Origin: Pedobacter nanyangensis
Lineage (GTDB): Bacteria; Bacteroidota; Bacteroidia; Sphingobacteriales; Sphingobacteriaceae
Assembly: GCF_003313505.1 (NCBI RefSeq)
Contig: NZ_QMHO01000008.1
Span: forward strand, 1 to 64,000
DNA length: 64,000 nt
Direction of reading: 5' to 3'
Below are positions 1 through 46,061 of this stretch, piece by piece (the stretch's first letter is position 1; each line of letters opens with the position of its first letter). The translations under genes and the position numbers were made by a program. A model generated the notes under the pieces. That model was given only the letters and a program-made list of their open reading frames with translations. It made no database searches and was not told the origin of the DNA.

Positions 1-313
1 ATTTTTGAGAAGCAATGTTCGTCAGCTTTTCATCGCAGCATTAGTCCCGCTATCCGCTACAATCTTTTGCCAGGTTCGTCATTGCCGAAACAGAGCAATC
101 TCAAGCAAAAGTATTTACGCTGCTATCGGGTTTATTCAACTTCGGCCTATGAAACTATGATAGAGCTGCCCGCCATTTTCGTTTATCAACCGCAACCCCG
201 TACATACGGGATAAACATTCGCAAAGGAACGCACAGTTTAAAATGCAGTAAATCTGTAGAACGCATTAAATATTTTAAACTATCTTAGGTCTACAAATCA
301 AATTAAACAACTA
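1..313. other. intergenic stretch, no convincing gene
   Basis: No reading frame here looks like a protein; the one open frame is compositionally poor and matches no family I know. Bases 77-102 (CGTCATTGCC then AGCAATCTC) resemble a degraded copy of the dispersed CGTCATTGCGAG...GCAATCTC repeat that is clearer at 33191-33218. The end of an upstream gene is not visible. Bases 250-313 are AT-rich and precede the acetolactate decarboxylase start, but no clear TAnnTTTG box is present. Confidence 0.5.
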
Positions 314-4328: not shown

Positions 4329-5477
4329 TTAGGCCAAAGCATTCTGCTTTACAACCATTTTAACTTTCTCCAACGTATAGTCAATTTCTTCTTTAGTGGT
4401 GTATTTACTAAATGAGAAACGAACCGCAGGACGATTTGGATCGGCTTTGATGCCATTAAGTACGTGCGAACCGATATTAGAACCCGATGAGCAGGCACTG
4501 CCACCAGAAGCGCAGATACCGTTAATATCCAAGTTGAACAACAGCATATCCGCCATTTCCATTTCAGGGAAAGATACGTTCAACACGGTGTACAAACTTT
4601 TATCCGCATCGGTTTCGCCGTTGAAAGAAATCCCAGGAATTTCGGCAATCAGCTGCTGCTTCATGTAGTCCTTTAAACCTTGTATATGGCTTTGGTGCTG
4701 TTCCATTTCGGCATAGGCAATTTCCAGTGCTTTGGCCAAACCCACAATGCCATACACATTTTCGGTCCCACCACGCATGTTGCGCTCTTGTGCACCACCA
4801 TAAATCATTGGCGGAATTTTAATGCTATTGTTCACATATAAAAATCCTACACCTTTTGGCCCGTGCAATTTATGTGCCGCACAAACAACAAAGTGGGCCT
4901 TCAGTTTGCGCACATCATGTTGGTAATGGCCCATCGTTTGCACCGTATCGGCATGGTAAATGGCATTATATTTTTCACATAAATCGCCTACTTTCTCCAT
5001 GTCGGTTAAAGTACCCAACTCGTTATTGGCATGCATTAAAGAAACAAAACTGCGTTCATTGCTCTGCAAAAGCTCCTCTAAATGGGCATAGTCTATATTC
5101 CCTTTTTCATCGATATTTACAAAACTAAGTTTATCTATCACGCCATCTTTAAGCAACATGTTCAAGGTATGCTCTACCGCATGGTGTTCAATGGTAGAGG
5201 TAATGGCATGTTTAATCCCATAAGCGGCAATTCCGCAACGAATGGCGGTATTATCTGCTTCGGTACCGCCTGAGGTAAAGAAAACTTCCGAAGGCGACGC
5301 ATTAAGCAGTGTAGCTACCGTTTTGCGTGCTTTCTCTACCAAGGTCCTTACCTCGCGGCCCAGCGCATGTATGGCAGAAGGATTTCCGTAGTAATTTTGC
5401 ATTACATTGGTCATTTCTTCTATTACAGCAGGATCCAGTGGCGTAGTTGCTGCATTATCTAAATAAACTCGTTTCAT
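4329..5477 (-). CDS. iscS: cysteine desulfurase, IscS/NifS type
   Basis: PLP enzyme that takes sulfur from L-cysteine as a persulfide for Fe-S clusters and thiolated tRNA. The 382 residues fit class V aminotransferases of group I. Visible motifs: YLDNAATTPLD at the N-terminus, SGGTEADNTAI, EHHAVEH (PLP-stacking His), the PLP lysine K203 in CAAHKLHGPKG, and the catalytic cysteine C329 in the mobile loop GSACSSGS, which is of the IscS/NifS rather than SufS kind. No iscU or iscA is adjacent; other Isc-type genes in the window (ferredoxin and iscX at 16.4-17 kb, hscA at 35.9 kb) are at separate sites. The preceding minus-strand gene is glmM, 94 nt upstream. Confidence 0.93.
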   Translation of the reverse strand: MKRVYLDNAATTPLDPAVIEEMTNVMQNYYGNPSAIHALGREVRTLVEKARKTVATLLNASPSEVFFTSGGTEADNTAIRCGIAAYGIKHAITSTIEHHAVEHTLNMLLKDGVIDKLSFVNIDEKGNIDYAHLEELLQSNERSFVSLMHANNELGTLTDMEKVGDLCEKYNAIYHADTVQTMGHYQHDVRKLKAHFVVCAAHKLHGPKGVGFLYVNNSIKIPPMIYGGAQERNMRGGTENVYGIVGLAKALEIAYAEMEQHQSHIQGLKDYMKQQLIAEIPGISFNGETDADKSLYTVLNVSFPEMEMADMLLFNLDINGICASGGSACSSGSNIGSHVLNGIKADPNRPAVRFSFSKYTTKEEIDYTLEKVKMVVKQNALA

Positions 5478-5571
5478 TTTTATGTGTGTTAGTTAGTATT
5501 TTTCAGTGGTTAGGTATCAATGGCTAGGCCTTGGTAGTTAGTTTATCTAATTCCTAGTATCAAAACCCACG

Positions 5572-6960
5572 CTAGTTGATCTGTAATATTTCTTTAATAT
5601 CAGAGATGATTTTTTGTGCTAAGTTTTCTGCGGTAGTCTCGTTTTCGGCCTCGCTGTAAATACGGATAATTGGCTCTGTATTCGATCGACGCAAATGCAC
5701 CCATTCTTTATCAAATTCGATTTTAAGCCCGTCAATGGTGCTATGAGGTTGTTTTTGGTATTTTTCTTGCACTTTCTCCAACAACAGGTCAATGTCCATT
5801 TCTGGAGTGAGGGTGATTTTGTTTTTTGAAATATGGTAAGCTGGATAACTTGCCCTTAGGATAGAAATAGGTTTACCAAATTTAGCCAAATGAGACAAGA
5901 AAAGTGCAATTCCTACCAGCGCATCTCTACCGTAGTGAGATTCTGGATAGATGATTCCTCCATTTCCTTCGCCCCCAATGATGGCATTAGTGGCCTTCAT
6001 CTGATTCACCACGTTTACTTCACCAACAGCCGCCGCATTGTATGCCATGCCTGCTTTCTCGGTCACATCTCTTAATGCTCGGGTAGAAGAAAGATTGGAA
6101 ACCGTATTGCCTGGCGTATGTTTCAGCACATAATCAGCTACGGCAACCAAGGTATATTCCTCGCCAAACATCGAGCCATCTTCGTTTACAAAGCACAGCC
6201 TGTCCACATCTGGGTCAACCACAATCCCTAAATCAGCATTTTTTTGCTGTACAACTTTGGCAATTTCAGTTAAATTTTCGGGTAGCGGCTCAGGGTTGTG
6301 CGGAAATTGTCCGTTAGGTTCACAATAAAGCTCATAAACGGTATCAACGCCCAAAGCTTTCAATAAAGGTGGCAGAAAAATCCCTCCTGTGGAGTTCACA
6401 CAGTCAATAGCTACCTTAAAGCTGGCCTTCTTAATGGCCTCAACATCAACCAAAGGAAGCGCCAAAATCGCATCGATATGTTTTTGGATATAAGTATCGT
6501 TTTTAATTACCTGTCCCAAGTGGTCTACTTCGGCAAAGCTGAAATCTGAATTTTCGGCAATGTCCAGTACTTCTTTTCCATCGGCATCGCTAATGAATTC
6601 GCCTTTGGCGTTTAAAAGCTTTAAAGCATTCCATTGTTTTGGGTTGTGGCTAGCCGTTAAAATAATTCCACCAGCAGCTTTTTCCATAGGTACGGCAATC
6701 TCCACGGTAGGCGTAGTAGAAAGTCCCAGATCAATCACTTCTATGCCCAAACCCTGCAAGGTGCCCACCACCAGGTTGTTTACCATTTCGCCAGAGATAC
6801 GTGCATCACGCCCAATAACAATCCTTTTATGTGCTGCTTTGCTAATTACCCATGAACCAAAAGCAGCCGTAAATTTTACAATATCAATGGGGGTTAAACC
6901 TTCGCCAGCCTTGCCGCCAATAGTTCCCCTAATGCCTGAGATAGATTTTATTAAAGTCAA
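5572..6960 (-). CDS. glmM: phosphoglucosamine mutase
   Basis: Converts glucosamine-6-phosphate to glucosamine-1-phosphate, feeding UDP-GlcNAc for peptidoglycan and LPS. The 462-aa protein has the alpha-D-phosphohexomutase plan: SISGIRGTIGG at the N-terminus, GRDARISGEM, the phosphoserine loop TASHNP with S104, the metal-binding DPDVDRL near the middle, GEGNGG, and the phosphate-binding RRSNTEPIIRIYSE at the C-terminus. The start is TTG at 6960, giving MTLIKSISGIRG, the form common in Bacteroidota; a TAATTTTG box at 6977-6984 sits 16 nt upstream, leaving no room for a longer protein. Assignment as GlmM rather than a general phosphomannomutase rests on the overall sequence style. Confidence 0.85.
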   Translation of the reverse strand: MTLIKSISGIRGTIGGKAGEGLTPIDIVKFTAAFGSWVISKAAHKRIVIGRDARISGEMVNNLVVGTLQGLGIEVIDLGLSTTPTVEIAVPMEKAAGGIILTASHNPKQWNALKLLNAKGEFISDADGKEVLDIAENSDFSFAEVDHLGQVIKNDTYIQKHIDAILALPLVDVEAIKKASFKVAIDCVNSTGGIFLPPLLKALGVDTVYELYCEPNGQFPHNPEPLPENLTEIAKVVQQKNADLGIVVDPDVDRLCFVNEDGSMFGEEYTLVAVADYVLKHTPGNTVSNLSSTRALRDVTEKAGMAYNAAAVGEVNVVNQMKATNAIIGGEGNGGIIYPESHYGRDALVGIALFLSHLAKFGKPISILRASYPAYHISKNKITLTPEMDIDLLLEKVQEKYQKQPHSTIDGLKIEFDKEWVHLRRSNTEPIIRIYSEAENETTAENLAQKIISDIKEILQIN

Positions 6961-6976
6961 GTCTTCTATTTTTCGT

Positions 6977-6984
6977 CAAAATTA
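6977..6984 (-). promoter_or_regulatory. TAnnTTTG -7 box for glmM
   Basis: Minus strand TAATTTTG, 16 nt before the TTG start of glmM; supports the TTG start. Confidence 0.5.
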
Positions 6985-7137
6985 AGAAAAATAAATGCTT
7001 TAACTTTAGCTTAATTATCATGATTTTGAAATTTAAACTTCAAGTAAATCTATGAGTTAAGTAGTTGATAGCTCTTGCCAATGGCTTTTGTTTAGCGTAT
7101 TTTTGGGCGTGCAAACAAGATAAGCCGCAACATTTTA

Positions 7138-17664: not shown

Positions 17665-17870
17665 CAATCATTTTCGTATATAAAACCACGAAAAACCCTA
17701 TAAAACCTCCCTAACGCATTGCCCGGCAACAACCGTAATTATAAAACAATGCCTAAGCACGCCACCTACTCTTCCCTTAACATTTTTTAACACAATATCT
17801 TTTCAAGCAAATTAAACCTCTTGTTAGTTTTATGCTCCAAAGAAAAAACAAAAACAATAATTCTAAACAC

Positions 17871-18263
17871 ATGAAAAAATTGATGATGATTTGCGGGCTA
17901 TTATTTGGTATGGTAGCATTTGCACAGGCACAACAGGAAGGTGCAAGACCAGGTGGCCGCATGGGAATTAATCCGGAAGCCAGAGTTAAACAATTAGATG
18001 AAAAACTTAAGCTTTCCGATGACCAAAAAGCAAAGTTAACCACCCTTTTTACCGAGCAAACGGAAGCACAAAAAAAATTACGCGACGAAACAGCTGGCGA
18101 CAGAAAAGCGATGATGGAAAAAATGCAGAAAATGAGAGCCGACCTTGAAACCAAAATAAGCGCTGTACTAAACGATGAGCAAAAGAAAACCTACAAAGCC
18201 ATGGTTGAGGAGCAAAGAGCTGAAATGGAAAAAAGAATGAAAGAACGCCAAGGAGGCAATTAA
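17871..18263 (+). CDS. Spy/CpxP-like periplasmic protein
   Basis: 130 residues from the ATG at 17871, which places a standard signal peptide (MKKLMMICGLLFGMVAFAQA) at the start; the open frame extends 13 codons upstream but that part is not signal-like. The mature part is helical and charged, with LKLSDDQKAKLTTLFTEQ resembling the LTxxQ motif of Spy/CpxP and a Met/Lys/Glu-rich helix (MMEKMQKMRADLETKISAVLNDEQ). A periplasmic chaperone or stress sensor role is possible by analogy. A hairpin terminator follows directly. Confidence 0.7.
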   Translation: MKKLMMICGLLFGMVAFAQAQQEGARPGGRMGINPEARVKQLDEKLKLSDDQKAKLTTLFTEQTEAQKKLRDETAGDRKAMMEKMQKMRADLETKISAVLNDEQKKTYKAMVEEQRAEMEKRMKERQGGN

Positions 18264-18282: not shown

Positions 18283-18312
18283 AACAAAGCGGCCCTGCGC
18301 CGCTTTTGTTGT
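18283..18312 (+). terminator. intrinsic terminator after the Spy-like gene
   Basis: AAAGCGGC, loop CCTGC, GCCGCTTTT then TGTTGTTT: a GC-rich stem with a T-rich tail 20 nt after the stop codon. Confidence 0.8.
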
Positions 18313-18329
18313 TTAATTCCTCAGAAATC

Positions 18330-18552
18330 CATACAACATTTATAAAAATTCATACAGAACCTGCAAAAGTTCATACAGAACTTGAAAAAATTCATGCAGA
18401 ATCTGAAAAAAATCGTATAAGATTTACAAAATGCTATACAGCAATCACAAAAATCTATACAACATTTGCAATATTTCATACAAAAAACAAAAAAAGTCAT
18501 ACAGAAATTTCAAGATATTATACAGAATTTACCAATTTCCATATAGAAAACA
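18330..18552 (+). repeat. 21-bp degenerate tandem repeat array, ten full units and a part
   Basis: Units start at exact 21-nt intervals: 18330, 18351, 18372, 18393, 18414, 18435, 18456, 18477, 18498, 18519 and a partial one at 18540. The consensus is roughly CATACAGAA, then TTTG-like, then AAAAATT; units 2 and 3 are most alike, units 5 and 8 most diverged. No unit contains an insertion or deletion, so the register holds across 223 nt. Read on the plus strand it is open and gives heptads such as IHTEPAK and VHTELEK, but a promoter box for maf lies further along the same frame and the only start is a TTG inside a terminator, so coding is doubtful. There are no spacers, which excludes CRISPR. 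Confidence 0.9.
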
Positions 18553-18700
18553 CCAGCTGTAGCGTATCAAACCAAAGCCCTAGCCTTAAACCTATGGCAC
18601 AAAGCGCTAACCGGCCAAAGGGCCGTACTAAATGCCAAATAGATAAGCAGCCTTGTACAATTGTTTATTTTATTTTTAAATTTGGCCAATAACTAAGCGC
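18553..18700 (+). promoter_or_regulatory. maf upstream region with promoter
   Basis: Contains TTG at 18653-18655, a 21-nt spacer and TAAATTTG at 18677-18684, ending 16 nt before the maf ATG. The rest of this stretch holds nothing I can name. Confidence 0.55.
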
Positions 18701-19276
18701 ATGTTTCAACCTACCAGTCCAATTATACTCGCTTCAAAATCGCCCCGCCGACAGGAACTCCTGCGCTTAATGGGCCTAAGTTTTTCCATCGAACTTAAAG
18801 ATGTTGACGAAAGCTTTCCTGCAAGCCTAAGTGCACCTGAAATTGCGGTTTTTATTGCCGAAAAAAAAGCAAAGGCATTTATTGGCGATGCCAACCATAT
18901 GGTAATTACCGCTGATACCATTGTGGCCATTAATGGTGAAATTTTGGGCAAACCCCAGCACCATGCCGAGGCCCAGGAAATGCTTGCCAAGCTATCAGGC
19001 AGTAGCCACGAGGTTTACACCGGCGTAAGTATCAGTTACCAGGGCAAAATCACTTCCTTTTACGATAAAACCACGGTGTTTTGCCGTGTACTAAAAAGCC
19101 AAGAAATTACCTACTATATTGATAACTACCAACCGTTTGACAAAGCGGGCAGTTATGGTATCCAAGATTGGTTTGGCCTTGCCGCAGTGCAAAGGATAGA
19201 AGGCTCCTACACCAACGTTATGGGCCTTCCTACCGAGAAACTATATGAACATTTGTGCAGGCTAGCTGGCTGCTGA
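18701..19276 (+). CDS. maf: Maf-like nucleoside triphosphate pyrophosphatase
   Basis: A 191-aa cytoplasmic enzyme that hydrolyses dTTP, UTP or modified NTPs to monophosphates (house-cleaning). Motifs: ILASKSPRRQELL at residues 10-22, DVDESFP, EKKAKAF, the metal/catalytic TADTIVAINGEILGKP, SGSSHEVYTGV, and the substrate-binding DKAGSYGIQDW with GSYTNVMGLP near the C-terminus. The length is usual for the family. DUF2520, kdsC-type and maf genes frequently sit together in Bacteroidota. It has its own promoter downstream of the tandem repeat array. Confidence 0.93.
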   Translation: MFQPTSPIILASKSPRRQELLRLMGLSFSIELKDVDESFPASLSAPEIAVFIAEKKAKAFIGDANHMVITADTIVAINGEILGKPQHHAEAQEMLAKLSGSSHEVYTGVSISYQGKITSFYDKTTVFCRVLKSQEITYYIDNYQPFDKAGSYGIQDWFGLAAVQRIEGSYTNVMGLPTEKLYEHLCRLAGC

Positions 19277-45776: not shown

Positions 45777-45904
45777 AAGAAAAGATCATTGAGTTATTTC
45801 GGTTTTTGCAACAATAAAGGAATAAGCAATGGCTGTTTTGGACAGGCCCTTGTTTAATAAACCTGATGGTAGTGAAAATACTTTTTGTGACACCTGCGTA
45901 CCAC

Positions 45905-45937
45905 AAACCTCGCAGGTTTTAAAAACCTGTGAGGTTT
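45905..45937. repeat. 33-bp palindromic intergenic repeat, copy 2
   Basis: AAACCTCGCAGGTTTT followed by AAAAACCTGTGAGGTTT: same length and layout as the copy at 4206-4238, differing at two paired positions near the arm middle. Confidence 0.8.
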
Positions 45938-46061
45938 TTAGCATTAACGTTAGCAAAAAGATTGCAACGTACAGCAGGGCTGCCCTGGCCATGAAATGCC
46001 TAACACCGTTTTTCAAATTGTGATAAGATTGAAATAACCTATAACCGTTAATTTTATTAAA

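What the first reader, a model, noticed from the sequence alone, without database searches (positions are those of the whole stretch)
18330..18552. 21-bp degenerate tandem array with perfect register
Ten full units and one partial unit follow each other at exactly 21 nt without a single insertion or deletion, although base identity between units is modest. 21 bp is two helical turns, so any feature bound by a protein would be on one DNA face. The array is open as heptads (IHTEPAK, VHTELEK and so on), but the only start codon is a TTG inside the preceding terminator and a promoter for maf lies inside the same frame. Keeping length while sequence drifts suggests selection on spacing or recent birth from slippage.
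Basis: partly seen in the sequence, partly recalled or inferred. Interest (0 to 1): 0.72.

Follow-up and report, generated by a model that had tools for sequence, protein, structure and literature searches.

The report
Non-coding DNA built from 21-bp modules
Between two ordinary genes this bacterium carries an inserted stretch made of 21-letter DNA modules, two helix turns each, in which a short core tends to keep only its pattern of large and small bases while the rest varies freely; the same kind of module array lies at other places in the genome and forms mobile-looking elements in related bacteria.

Summary
The array is real: 11 modules of exactly 21 bp at 18330-18560, with no insertion or deletion. 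It is neither a chance stretch nor a convincing gene. Five such arrays (10-19 modules, 65 in all) lie in this 4.7 Mb genome. The window copy sits in a spy-maf gap of about 440 nt that measures 81-148 nt in 28 of 28 congeners compared, so it is a lineage-specific insertion. Five further genomes of the family (Sphingobacteriaceae), not used to build the search model, carry arrays with the same core. One holds a 620-bp element at six sites; two share a 15-module element, with inverted-repeat ends, at unrelated sites. Internal length changes between copies are whole modules. In the core (YYRYRYRR, centred on TA) the purine/pyrimidine pattern holds in 506 of 520 cells of the own arrays, and base identity varies within class; spacers vary freely. 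Signs of RNA pairing or of protein selection were sought and not found, though open frames are commoner than expected. Best reading: a MITE-like dispersed element made of in-phase DNA-protein sites recognised by step pattern (DNA shape). The protein is unknown. The closest known element is BrickBuilt of Porphyromonas gingivalis.

The parts
18330..18560 (+). array A1: 11 contiguous 21-bp modules, core YYRYRYRR (columns 21,1-7), consensus about YATACAGAA + 12 variable
18624..18644 (+). single further core-like module in the same register, three modules beyond the array
   Evidence: score 5.8 in register; weak
18317..18660 (.). approximate extent of the insertion between the spy terminator and the maf promoter region, absent in congeners; exact ends not resolved
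   Evidence: spy-maf gap 440 nt by tblastn match ends (437 between ORFs) against 81-148 nt by match ends in 28 of 28 relatives with both genes on the locus
18286..18306 (+). terminator-like hairpin of the upstream gene; the insertion starts after it
   Evidence: a hairpin at the same place is seen by eye in the nine congener gaps printed
17832..18263 (+). upstream gene, Spy/LTXXQ-like (24.1 bits, just under Pfam's cut-off of 24.3)
18701..19276 (+). downstream gene, Maf-like protein
18306..18692 (+). open frame (TTG start, 128 aa) over the array; judged not to be a gene
   Evidence: this frame has stops in A4 and A5; no silent-change excess in the open frames of related elements

Best explanation
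The array is the body of a non-coding, dispersed, probably non-autonomous mobile element (MITE-like) built from 21-bp modules. Shown: the modules recur at five sites in this genome. The window copy is an insertion. In relatives, whole elements of such modules sit with sharp ends at unrelated sites and change length internally by whole modules. The best kept part of a module is an 8-bp TA-centred core in which the purine/pyrimidine pattern is kept while base identity within each class varies. Inferred: each core is a site for a dimeric DNA-bending or DNA-wrapping protein that reads the three pyrimidine-purine steps (deformability, indirect readout) rather than the bases. Because 21 bp is two turns, all sites face the same side and the proteins can pack cooperatively. 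The protein may be the element's own transposase or recombinase, or a host nucleoid protein; I cannot tell which.
For: Five arrays in G000, A5 found by a model built without it. Spy-maf gap about 440 nt against 81-148 nt in 28 of 28 relatives. Core pattern kept in 506 of 520 cells of 65 own modules. Departures from the column majority in the core are 14/14, 18/18 and 22/22 transitions in A1, A3 and A4, 46/57 in A2 and 23/26 in A5; spacer departures are near or below one third. Against the transition share seen at spacer sites between homologous G556 copies (63 of 98) the own arrays still exceed it, p 6e-5 to 6e-3 each. Of the 21 eight-column windows in A1 only the one starting at column 21 has no transversion. 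In six G556 copies, variable core sites are transition-only in 29 of 33, spacer sites in 63 of 98, p=0.014. Arrays in G570, G521, G556, G567 and G659 among 301 family genomes. A 15-module element shared by G567 and G659 with different flanks, equal length (320 nt between the ends used), 31 substitutions and no indel in 315 sites, inverted ends around GCCATTTCCC. Six copies of a 620-bp element in G556, internal gaps 21, 21, 62, 21, 21, 83, 378 and 21.
Against: No inverted-repeat ends or shared flank motif were found for the five arrays of this genome, and no target-site duplication was established. No transposase partner: of 29 end-motif hits in 8 genomes, 8 are ends of known arrays; 10 of the other 21 were inspected, with no array there and their ORFs not identified (an eleventh, L242, holds a different module array). 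Transitions are also the commoner change in spacers of homologous copies (63 of 98 sites in G556, 12 of 24 changes in G567/G659), so part of the core's transition excess is mutation bias; G751 and G570 do not exceed that level (p 0.59, 0.17), and G741, G556 and G751 have only 57%, 42% and 59% transitions in core differences. In G567/G659 the 8-column core is not significantly slower than the spacer (7/120 against 24/195, p=0.08) and its 5:2 transition ratio is not special (p=0.41); only the post-hoc columns 1-6 are slower (2/90 against 29/225, p=0.003). In C78 against C56 the core changes nearly as often as the spacer (11/176 against 23/286). Partners across the dyad do not match beyond chance in the own arrays. 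G556 has one 20-bp module and 3-nt gaps in two end modules. One G742 array overlaps the start of a 688-aa open frame (L223). Stop-free frames are commoner than column shuffles give. No protein was identified.
Confidence: 0.46

Rival explanations
1. Selfish or neutral minisatellite: the unit multiplies by slippage and unequal exchange, needs no binding protein, and stays in register only because whole modules are exchanged.
For: Internal length changes in G556 copies are whole modules; A5 holds a 63-bp duplication (88% over 104 bp); some arrays have largely alike units (L063 and G742:C25, spacer identity 0.69 and 0.68). Part of the transition excess in the core could be mutation bias.
Against: In 12 of 14 arrays spacers are 34-55% alike while cores are 48-87% alike, so exchange is not homogenising whole units. 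No small indel outside two end modules against 233 substitutions summed over five pairwise comparisons of G556 copies. In the own arrays core changes exceed even the transition share of homologous spacers.
Confidence: 0.24
2. Transcribed array of RNA hairpins: the right half of one core pairs with the left half of the next.
For: A1, A3, A4 and A5 fold better than dinucleotide shuffles on at least one strand (z down to -7.4 for A3 minus; A2 does not). A5 matches its own reverse complement over 225 bp. In 98 modules of six other arrays, dyad partners match more often than under independence (60 against 55.7, 64 against 46.8, 52 against 44.4, 54 against 29.3), though arrays with different consensus are pooled there.
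Against: Against column-wise shuffles that keep the consensus only A5 stays strong (z -4.2 and -5.7); A3 and A4 minus reach -2.9 and -2.3, A1 is -1.8 and -0.4, A2 is positive. Partner columns do not covary in the own arrays (23 against 29.7 expected, 26 against 31.2, 32 against 30.8). Mirror order of spacers is not below p=0.05 in any of 14 arrays (lowest 0.050).
Confidence: 0.1
3. RNA sponge or guide target: all cores can pair, with G-U wobble, to one short RNA, which would also explain why transitions are tolerated.
For: Y opposite G and R opposite U are both tolerated pairs, so a single 8-nt partner would fit every core that keeps the pattern (inference).
Against: Does not explain the fixed 21-bp pitch or the whole-module length changes; no such RNA was sought; Rfam gives no match in the region at gathering score.
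Confidence: 0.06
4. A protein-coding heptad repeat (HTE or PYG heptads).
For: The HTE frame has no stop in A1-A3 and the PYG frame none in A2, A4 and A5. 11 of 12 arrays have at least one stop-free frame, where column shuffles would give about 5 (sum of the shares); A2 has two (p 0.01). Open frames of up to 177 aa overlap the own arrays (A2).
Against: The stop-free frame is not the same one from array to array. Over whole G556 copies no frame is open in any of the five long copies. In the frame open over the G556 array part 9 of 30 changed codons are silent (neutral 0.24), in that of G567/G659 6 of 27 (neutral 0.19), so no purifying selection. R rather than N at column 2 is not expected from Pro/Ser/Leu codons. 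The only start for the window frame is a TTG in the terminator.
Confidence: 0.05

Closest known systems
BrickBuilt, minisatellite-bearing MITE of Porphyromonas gingivalis (PMC4596501; abstract, sections 5, 7 part 1 and 8, and find-passages read)
   Same: Bacteroidota; intergenic; many dispersed copies in one species; short tandem unit (23 nt) with conserved and free parts; whole units gained and lost; ends with inverted repeats in some copies; no transposase inside; one copy lies behind an intact terminator. Its published degenerate unit contains one 8-mer that fits YYRYRYRR (10% by chance), and its four ambiguous positions are all Y or R.
   Different: Unit 23 nt, not 21; repeats 0-11% mismatched, here spacers differ by 45% or more in 12 of 14 arrays; 0-6% indels inside arrays, here almost none; long non-repetitive leader and tail; ends resemble IS5-family ends; reported only in P. 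gingivalis and P. gulae.
REP/BIME and REPIN elements (recalled; REPIN paper PMC3116915 seen only in a search listing)
   Same: Small palindromic intergenic repeats, dispersed, non-coding; BIMEs can be tandem and are known to bind host proteins (recalled).
   Different: No REP-type hairpin foot was noticed, no fixed 21-bp pitch in REPs (recalled); a RAYT link was not tested.
In-phase operator arrays (two-turn spacing), for example BvgA sites or ARG boxes (recalled; BvgA paper PMC7250471 seen only in a listing with the start of its abstract)
   Same: Dimer sites at about two turns, on one DNA face, cooperative binding (recalled).
   Different: Those are few sites next to one promoter; here 8-23 sites in mobile-looking elements, with base identity variable within purine/pyrimidine class.
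Iteron or centromere arrays (recalled)
   Same: Tandem protein sites of about 20 bp in register.
   Different: The genes next to the window array are spy-like and maf, not replication or partition genes; arrays are scattered over the genome's contigs.

Membership tests
MITE (miniature inverted-repeat transposable element) | short non-coding element without transposase gene | tested here: met
   none of the six frames stop-free in all own arrays; in the 620-bp G556 element every frame has stops; open frames overlapping the G556 and G567/G659 elements are at most 164 aa and show no silent-change excess where stop-free
MITE (miniature inverted-repeat transposable element) | terminal inverted repeats | tested here: inconclusive
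   present in G567/G659 (around GCCATTTCCC at both ends) and weakly in G556 (AACCGTTTG/CCAAACGG); none recognised for the five arrays of this genome
MITE (miniature inverted-repeat transposable element) | multiple dispersed copies at unrelated sites with sharp ends | tested here: met
   six G556 copies and one 42-bp end fragment; G567/G659 different flanks; in G000 only unit-level likeness among five arrays
MITE (miniature inverted-repeat transposable element) | target-site duplication | tested here: inconclusive
   flanks of the G556 copies printed, no clear duplication read from them
MITE (miniature inverted-repeat transposable element) | related autonomous element supplying transposase | tested here: inconclusive
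   end-motif search in 8 genomes: 29 hits, 8 in known arrays, 10 of the other 21 inspected: no array, ORFs present but not identified; one more, L242, is another module array
BrickBuilt | 23-nt unit, leader and tail, IS5-like ends | tested here: not met
   unit 21 bp; no shared flank motif in G000
heptad-repeat protein gene | one conserved open frame under purifying selection | tested here: not met
   but stop-free frames are more frequent than column shuffles predict
structured RNA | covarying pairs beyond consensus | tested here: not met
   own arrays; other arrays pooled show some excess
protein-binding site array | bound protein | not testable with these tools
   only sequence constraint shown

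The most novel reading that the evidence does not exclude
A class of mobile, non-coding elements, spread thinly over several bacterial phyla, whose main selected sequence is a string of YYRYRYRR steps at exactly two-turn pitch: a DNA substrate written in purine/pyrimidine steps rather than bases, wrapped or polymerised on by a protein that reads deformability. BrickBuilt would be a 23-bp relative of the same class.
Probability: 0.22. Interest if true: 0.82.

Novelty: new variant of a known kind. Interest (0 to 1): 0.62.

Why it matters
Repeats that keep exact pitch and a purine/pyrimidine code while base identity drifts would be a natural, evolved set of sites for studying how proteins read DNA shape. 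They would also widen minisatellite-bearing MITEs from one oral genus to a diffuse class, and give a concrete target (65 natural variants in one genome) for finding the protein. Arrays of this kind contain open frames and could be annotated as small heptad genes, so recognising them would help gene calling.

Tried and rejected
Strict CCGTACGG pairs with free spacing in 395 Bacteroidota genomes: 10 genomes with a match, spacings scattered from 12 to 42, one of them at 21; that core is too narrow and arrays are rare. RNA hairpin idea: weakened by column shuffles and absence of covariation in the own arrays. Whole-element mirror symmetry: lowest p was 0.050 over 14 arrays. Shared flank motifs in this genome: 66 eight-mers in all five flanks against 40-83 in six random sets. 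Empty-site test at A4 failed because the downstream gene was not found beside it in the relatives fetched; A2, A3 and A5 were not tested. The 56 loci of the genome scan were selected by a pattern that contains part of the core, so they serve only to show 21-bp arrays elsewhere; some look like coding or cyanobacterial repeats and were not sorted. The one other hit of the phylum-wide run (G392) has five modules, four of them nearly identical. Paper searches; only BrickBuilt came up as a close match.

Corrections: the G567/G659 line was misregistered and is replaced. The G659 rows use modules 2-16 instead of 1-15 (one search has the right ones). Array ends printed are one base short; one search gives the right ones.

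Full report
Observation. The stretch is a true period-21 array. Self-match is 0.64/0.63/0.63 at shifts 21/42/63, mean 0.629, against a maximum of 0.485 over all periods 7-59 in 2000 Markov sequences. A fixed-register scan gives 11 modules, 18330-18560, score 105, against at most 12.5 in six shuffled windows. There is no indel. The coordinates in the finding are right to within eight bases at the 3' end.

Elsewhere in the same genome. The window is G000:C8:1-64000 of a 4.74 Mb genome. BLAST with the array finds two further arrays (C1:562.6 kb and C6:62.9 kb), and a periodicity scan of a weak hit finds a third (C1:354.7 kb). A sequence-only profile built from these four finds a fifth at C6:236.7 kb that was not in its alignment (E 2.9e-6). 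By register scan the five have 11, 19, 10, 12 and 13 modules. In the second, about nine modules with GC-rich spacers continue the same register upstream of the AT-rich ones (read). The arrays lie outside recognised genes; open frames that overlap them (128 aa in A1, 177 in A2, 85 in A4, 84 and 102 in A5) are judged below. A5 is near a contig end.

Orthologous site. Maf was found in 57 of 60 genomes of the genus, our own included; 30 loci were fetched, one of them our own. In 28 of the other 29 the Spy-like gene precedes maf, with 81-148 nt between match ends; the remaining one is cut by a contig end. Here the same measure gives 440 nt, 437 between ORFs. The nine gaps printed keep a terminator hairpin. 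The array is therefore part of an insertion of roughly 340 bp in this lineage.

Relatives. A second profile (27 rows, 15 from the five own arrays and 12 from seven other loci) was run on 301 genomes of the family: 7 have matches at E<=1e-4. One is this genome and one (G511, the same contig coordinates as G741, which holds the Parapedobacter composti locus L091) contributed to the model. The five others, G570 (same genus), G521, G556, G567 and G659, are independent of it. Sphingobacterium alkalisoli (G751) has another. Among 395 genomes spread over the phylum only this one and one more matched at 1e-5, so arrays are rare; both large runs used stricter filters that lose weak matches. Parapedobacter is in Sphingobacteriaceae, so the window's family is that one; the genus name is not known to me.

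Elements. G567 and G659 share a 15-module array, 31 differences in 315 sites and no gap, with unrelated flanks; identity starts and stops at an inverted end motif around GCCATTTCCC. In G556 a 620-bp element lies at six sites, some copies truncated or internally deleted, with a 42-bp end fragment at a seventh. Aligned to the first copy, the internal gaps are 21, 21, 62, 21, 21, 83, 378 and 21 nt, with 45, 60, 55, 51 and 22 substitutions in the five comparisons. I read 62 and 83 as whole-module gaps over the one module that is 20 bp long. Small gaps (3 nt) occur only in the first module of one copy and the last module of another.

What is conserved inside a module. In 65 own modules, columns 21 and 1-7 read Y Y R Y R Y R R with 14 exceptions in 520 cells. 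T3 and A4 are nearly fixed (60 and 58 of 65), while at columns 21, 1, 2, 5, 6 and 7 both members of the class are common. Counting departures from the column majority, core changes are 14 transitions and 0 transversions in A1, 18/0 in A3, 22/0 in A4, 46/11 in A2 and 23/3 in A5; spacers give 16/28, 16/26, 13/52, 38/75 and 17/57. G567 gives 16/1, G751 23/13 and G570 14/4 in the core. Modules within one array are related, so these counts are not independent events.

How much of this is mutation bias? Between homologous copies spacers also change more by transition than one third: 12 of 24 changes in G567/G659 and 63 of 98 variable sites in G556. Taking 0.64 as the neutral share, A1-A5 and G567 still exceed it (p 6e-5 to 6e-3 each), G751 and G570 do not (p 0.59, 0.17). 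In G556 variable core sites are transition-only in 29 of 33 against 63 of 98 for spacers (p=0.014). In G567/G659 the core has 5 transitions and 2 transversions (p=0.41). G741, G556 and G751 show only 57%, 42% and 59% transitions among core differences within arrays. So the purine/pyrimidine constraint is clear in this genome and weaker or mixed elsewhere. Rates: 7/120 core against 24/195 spacer sites in G567/G659 (p=0.08; columns 1-6 chosen afterwards 2/90 against 29/225, p=0.003), and 11/176 against 23/286 in two G556 copies. Core identity exceeds spacer identity in all 14 arrays, but five were found by a pattern that contains the core and five by profiles that contain it.

Coding. Against my reading, 11 of 12 arrays have at least one stop-free frame, where column shuffles would give about 5, and A2 has two (p 0.01); I have no full explanation. 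But the stop-free frame differs from array to array, the five long G556 copies have no frame open over their whole length, and changed codons in the frames that are open are silent about as often as expected without selection (9 of 30 with 0.24 expected; 6 of 27 with 0.19).

RNA. Folding beats dinucleotide shuffles in four of five own arrays, but with the consensus kept by column shuffles the effect stays strong only in A5, which has an internal duplication; A3 and A4 keep a moderate effect on one strand. Dyad partners do not match beyond chance in the own arrays; in 98 pooled modules of six others they do to some extent.

Mechanism. The pattern is three successive pyrimidine-purine steps flanked by YY and RR, centred on TA and self-complementary in purine/pyrimidine terms. 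From established DNA mechanics (recalled) these are the most deformable steps. Sites at 21 bp are two turns apart. I infer in-phase sites for a symmetric DNA-bending or wrapping protein read by shape. Whether it is a transposase, a recombinase or a host nucleoid protein is open. This is inference: no binding was shown.

Known relatives. BrickBuilt of P. gingivalis (PMC4596501) is the nearest: intergenic, dispersed, tandem units, whole-unit gain and loss, inverted ends in some copies. It differs in unit length, in far higher unit identity and in leader and tail. Its published unit holds one 8-mer fitting YYRYRYRR, with a 10% chance of that at random, a lead only. No paper listed in the searches appeared, from title and abstract start, to describe 21-bp arrays of this pattern; subscription literature is not covered.

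Noticed in passing
window 39-137 (-) and 45855-45985 (+): Two Flavo-1 RNA matches above the Rfam gathering score.
   Followed up: no
L048 7496-7685 and 8146-8335 (G000:C6): Array A3 lies between two 190-bp direct repeats, 95% identical, one of them the 3' end of a glycosyltransferase gene.
   Followed up: partly
L062, L086 (MAG Umea1_bin-1585, G742): Spacers occur in both orientations between palindromic CCGTACGG cores, as if single modules had been inverted. The model matches eight contigs of this MAG; of seven fetched, five hold 9-11 modules, one four and one none.
   Followed up: partly
L242 (G556:C13, about 16.0-16.8 kb): A 189-bp (9 x 21) unit repeated head to tail almost without difference over about 800 bp, itself made of 21-bp modules with a GTACGGGG-like core, and long open frames in five of six frames.
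   Followed up: partly
L223 (G742:C25) 4982-5212: An array overlapping the start of a 688-aa open frame (4947-7013), the one case seen of an array possibly inside a gene.
   Followed up: no
12 arrays: Stop-free frames are more frequent than column shuffles predict, though in differing frames and without silent-change excess; unexplained.
   Followed up: partly
L064, L066, L072, L077, L105 (Nostoc, Calothrix, Scytonematopsis): 21- or 23-bp arrays in cyanobacteria hit by the same pattern; perhaps the known short tandem repeats of these genomes (recalled), not examined.
   Followed up: no
L169 / L215 (G570, congener): A ten-module array of the same A-rich type as A1, in the same genus but at another site.
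   Followed up: partly
window 18677-18684: TAAATTTG fits the Bacteroidota -7 promoter element (TAnnTTTG, recalled) 16 bp before the maf start, downstream of the array.
   Followed up: no
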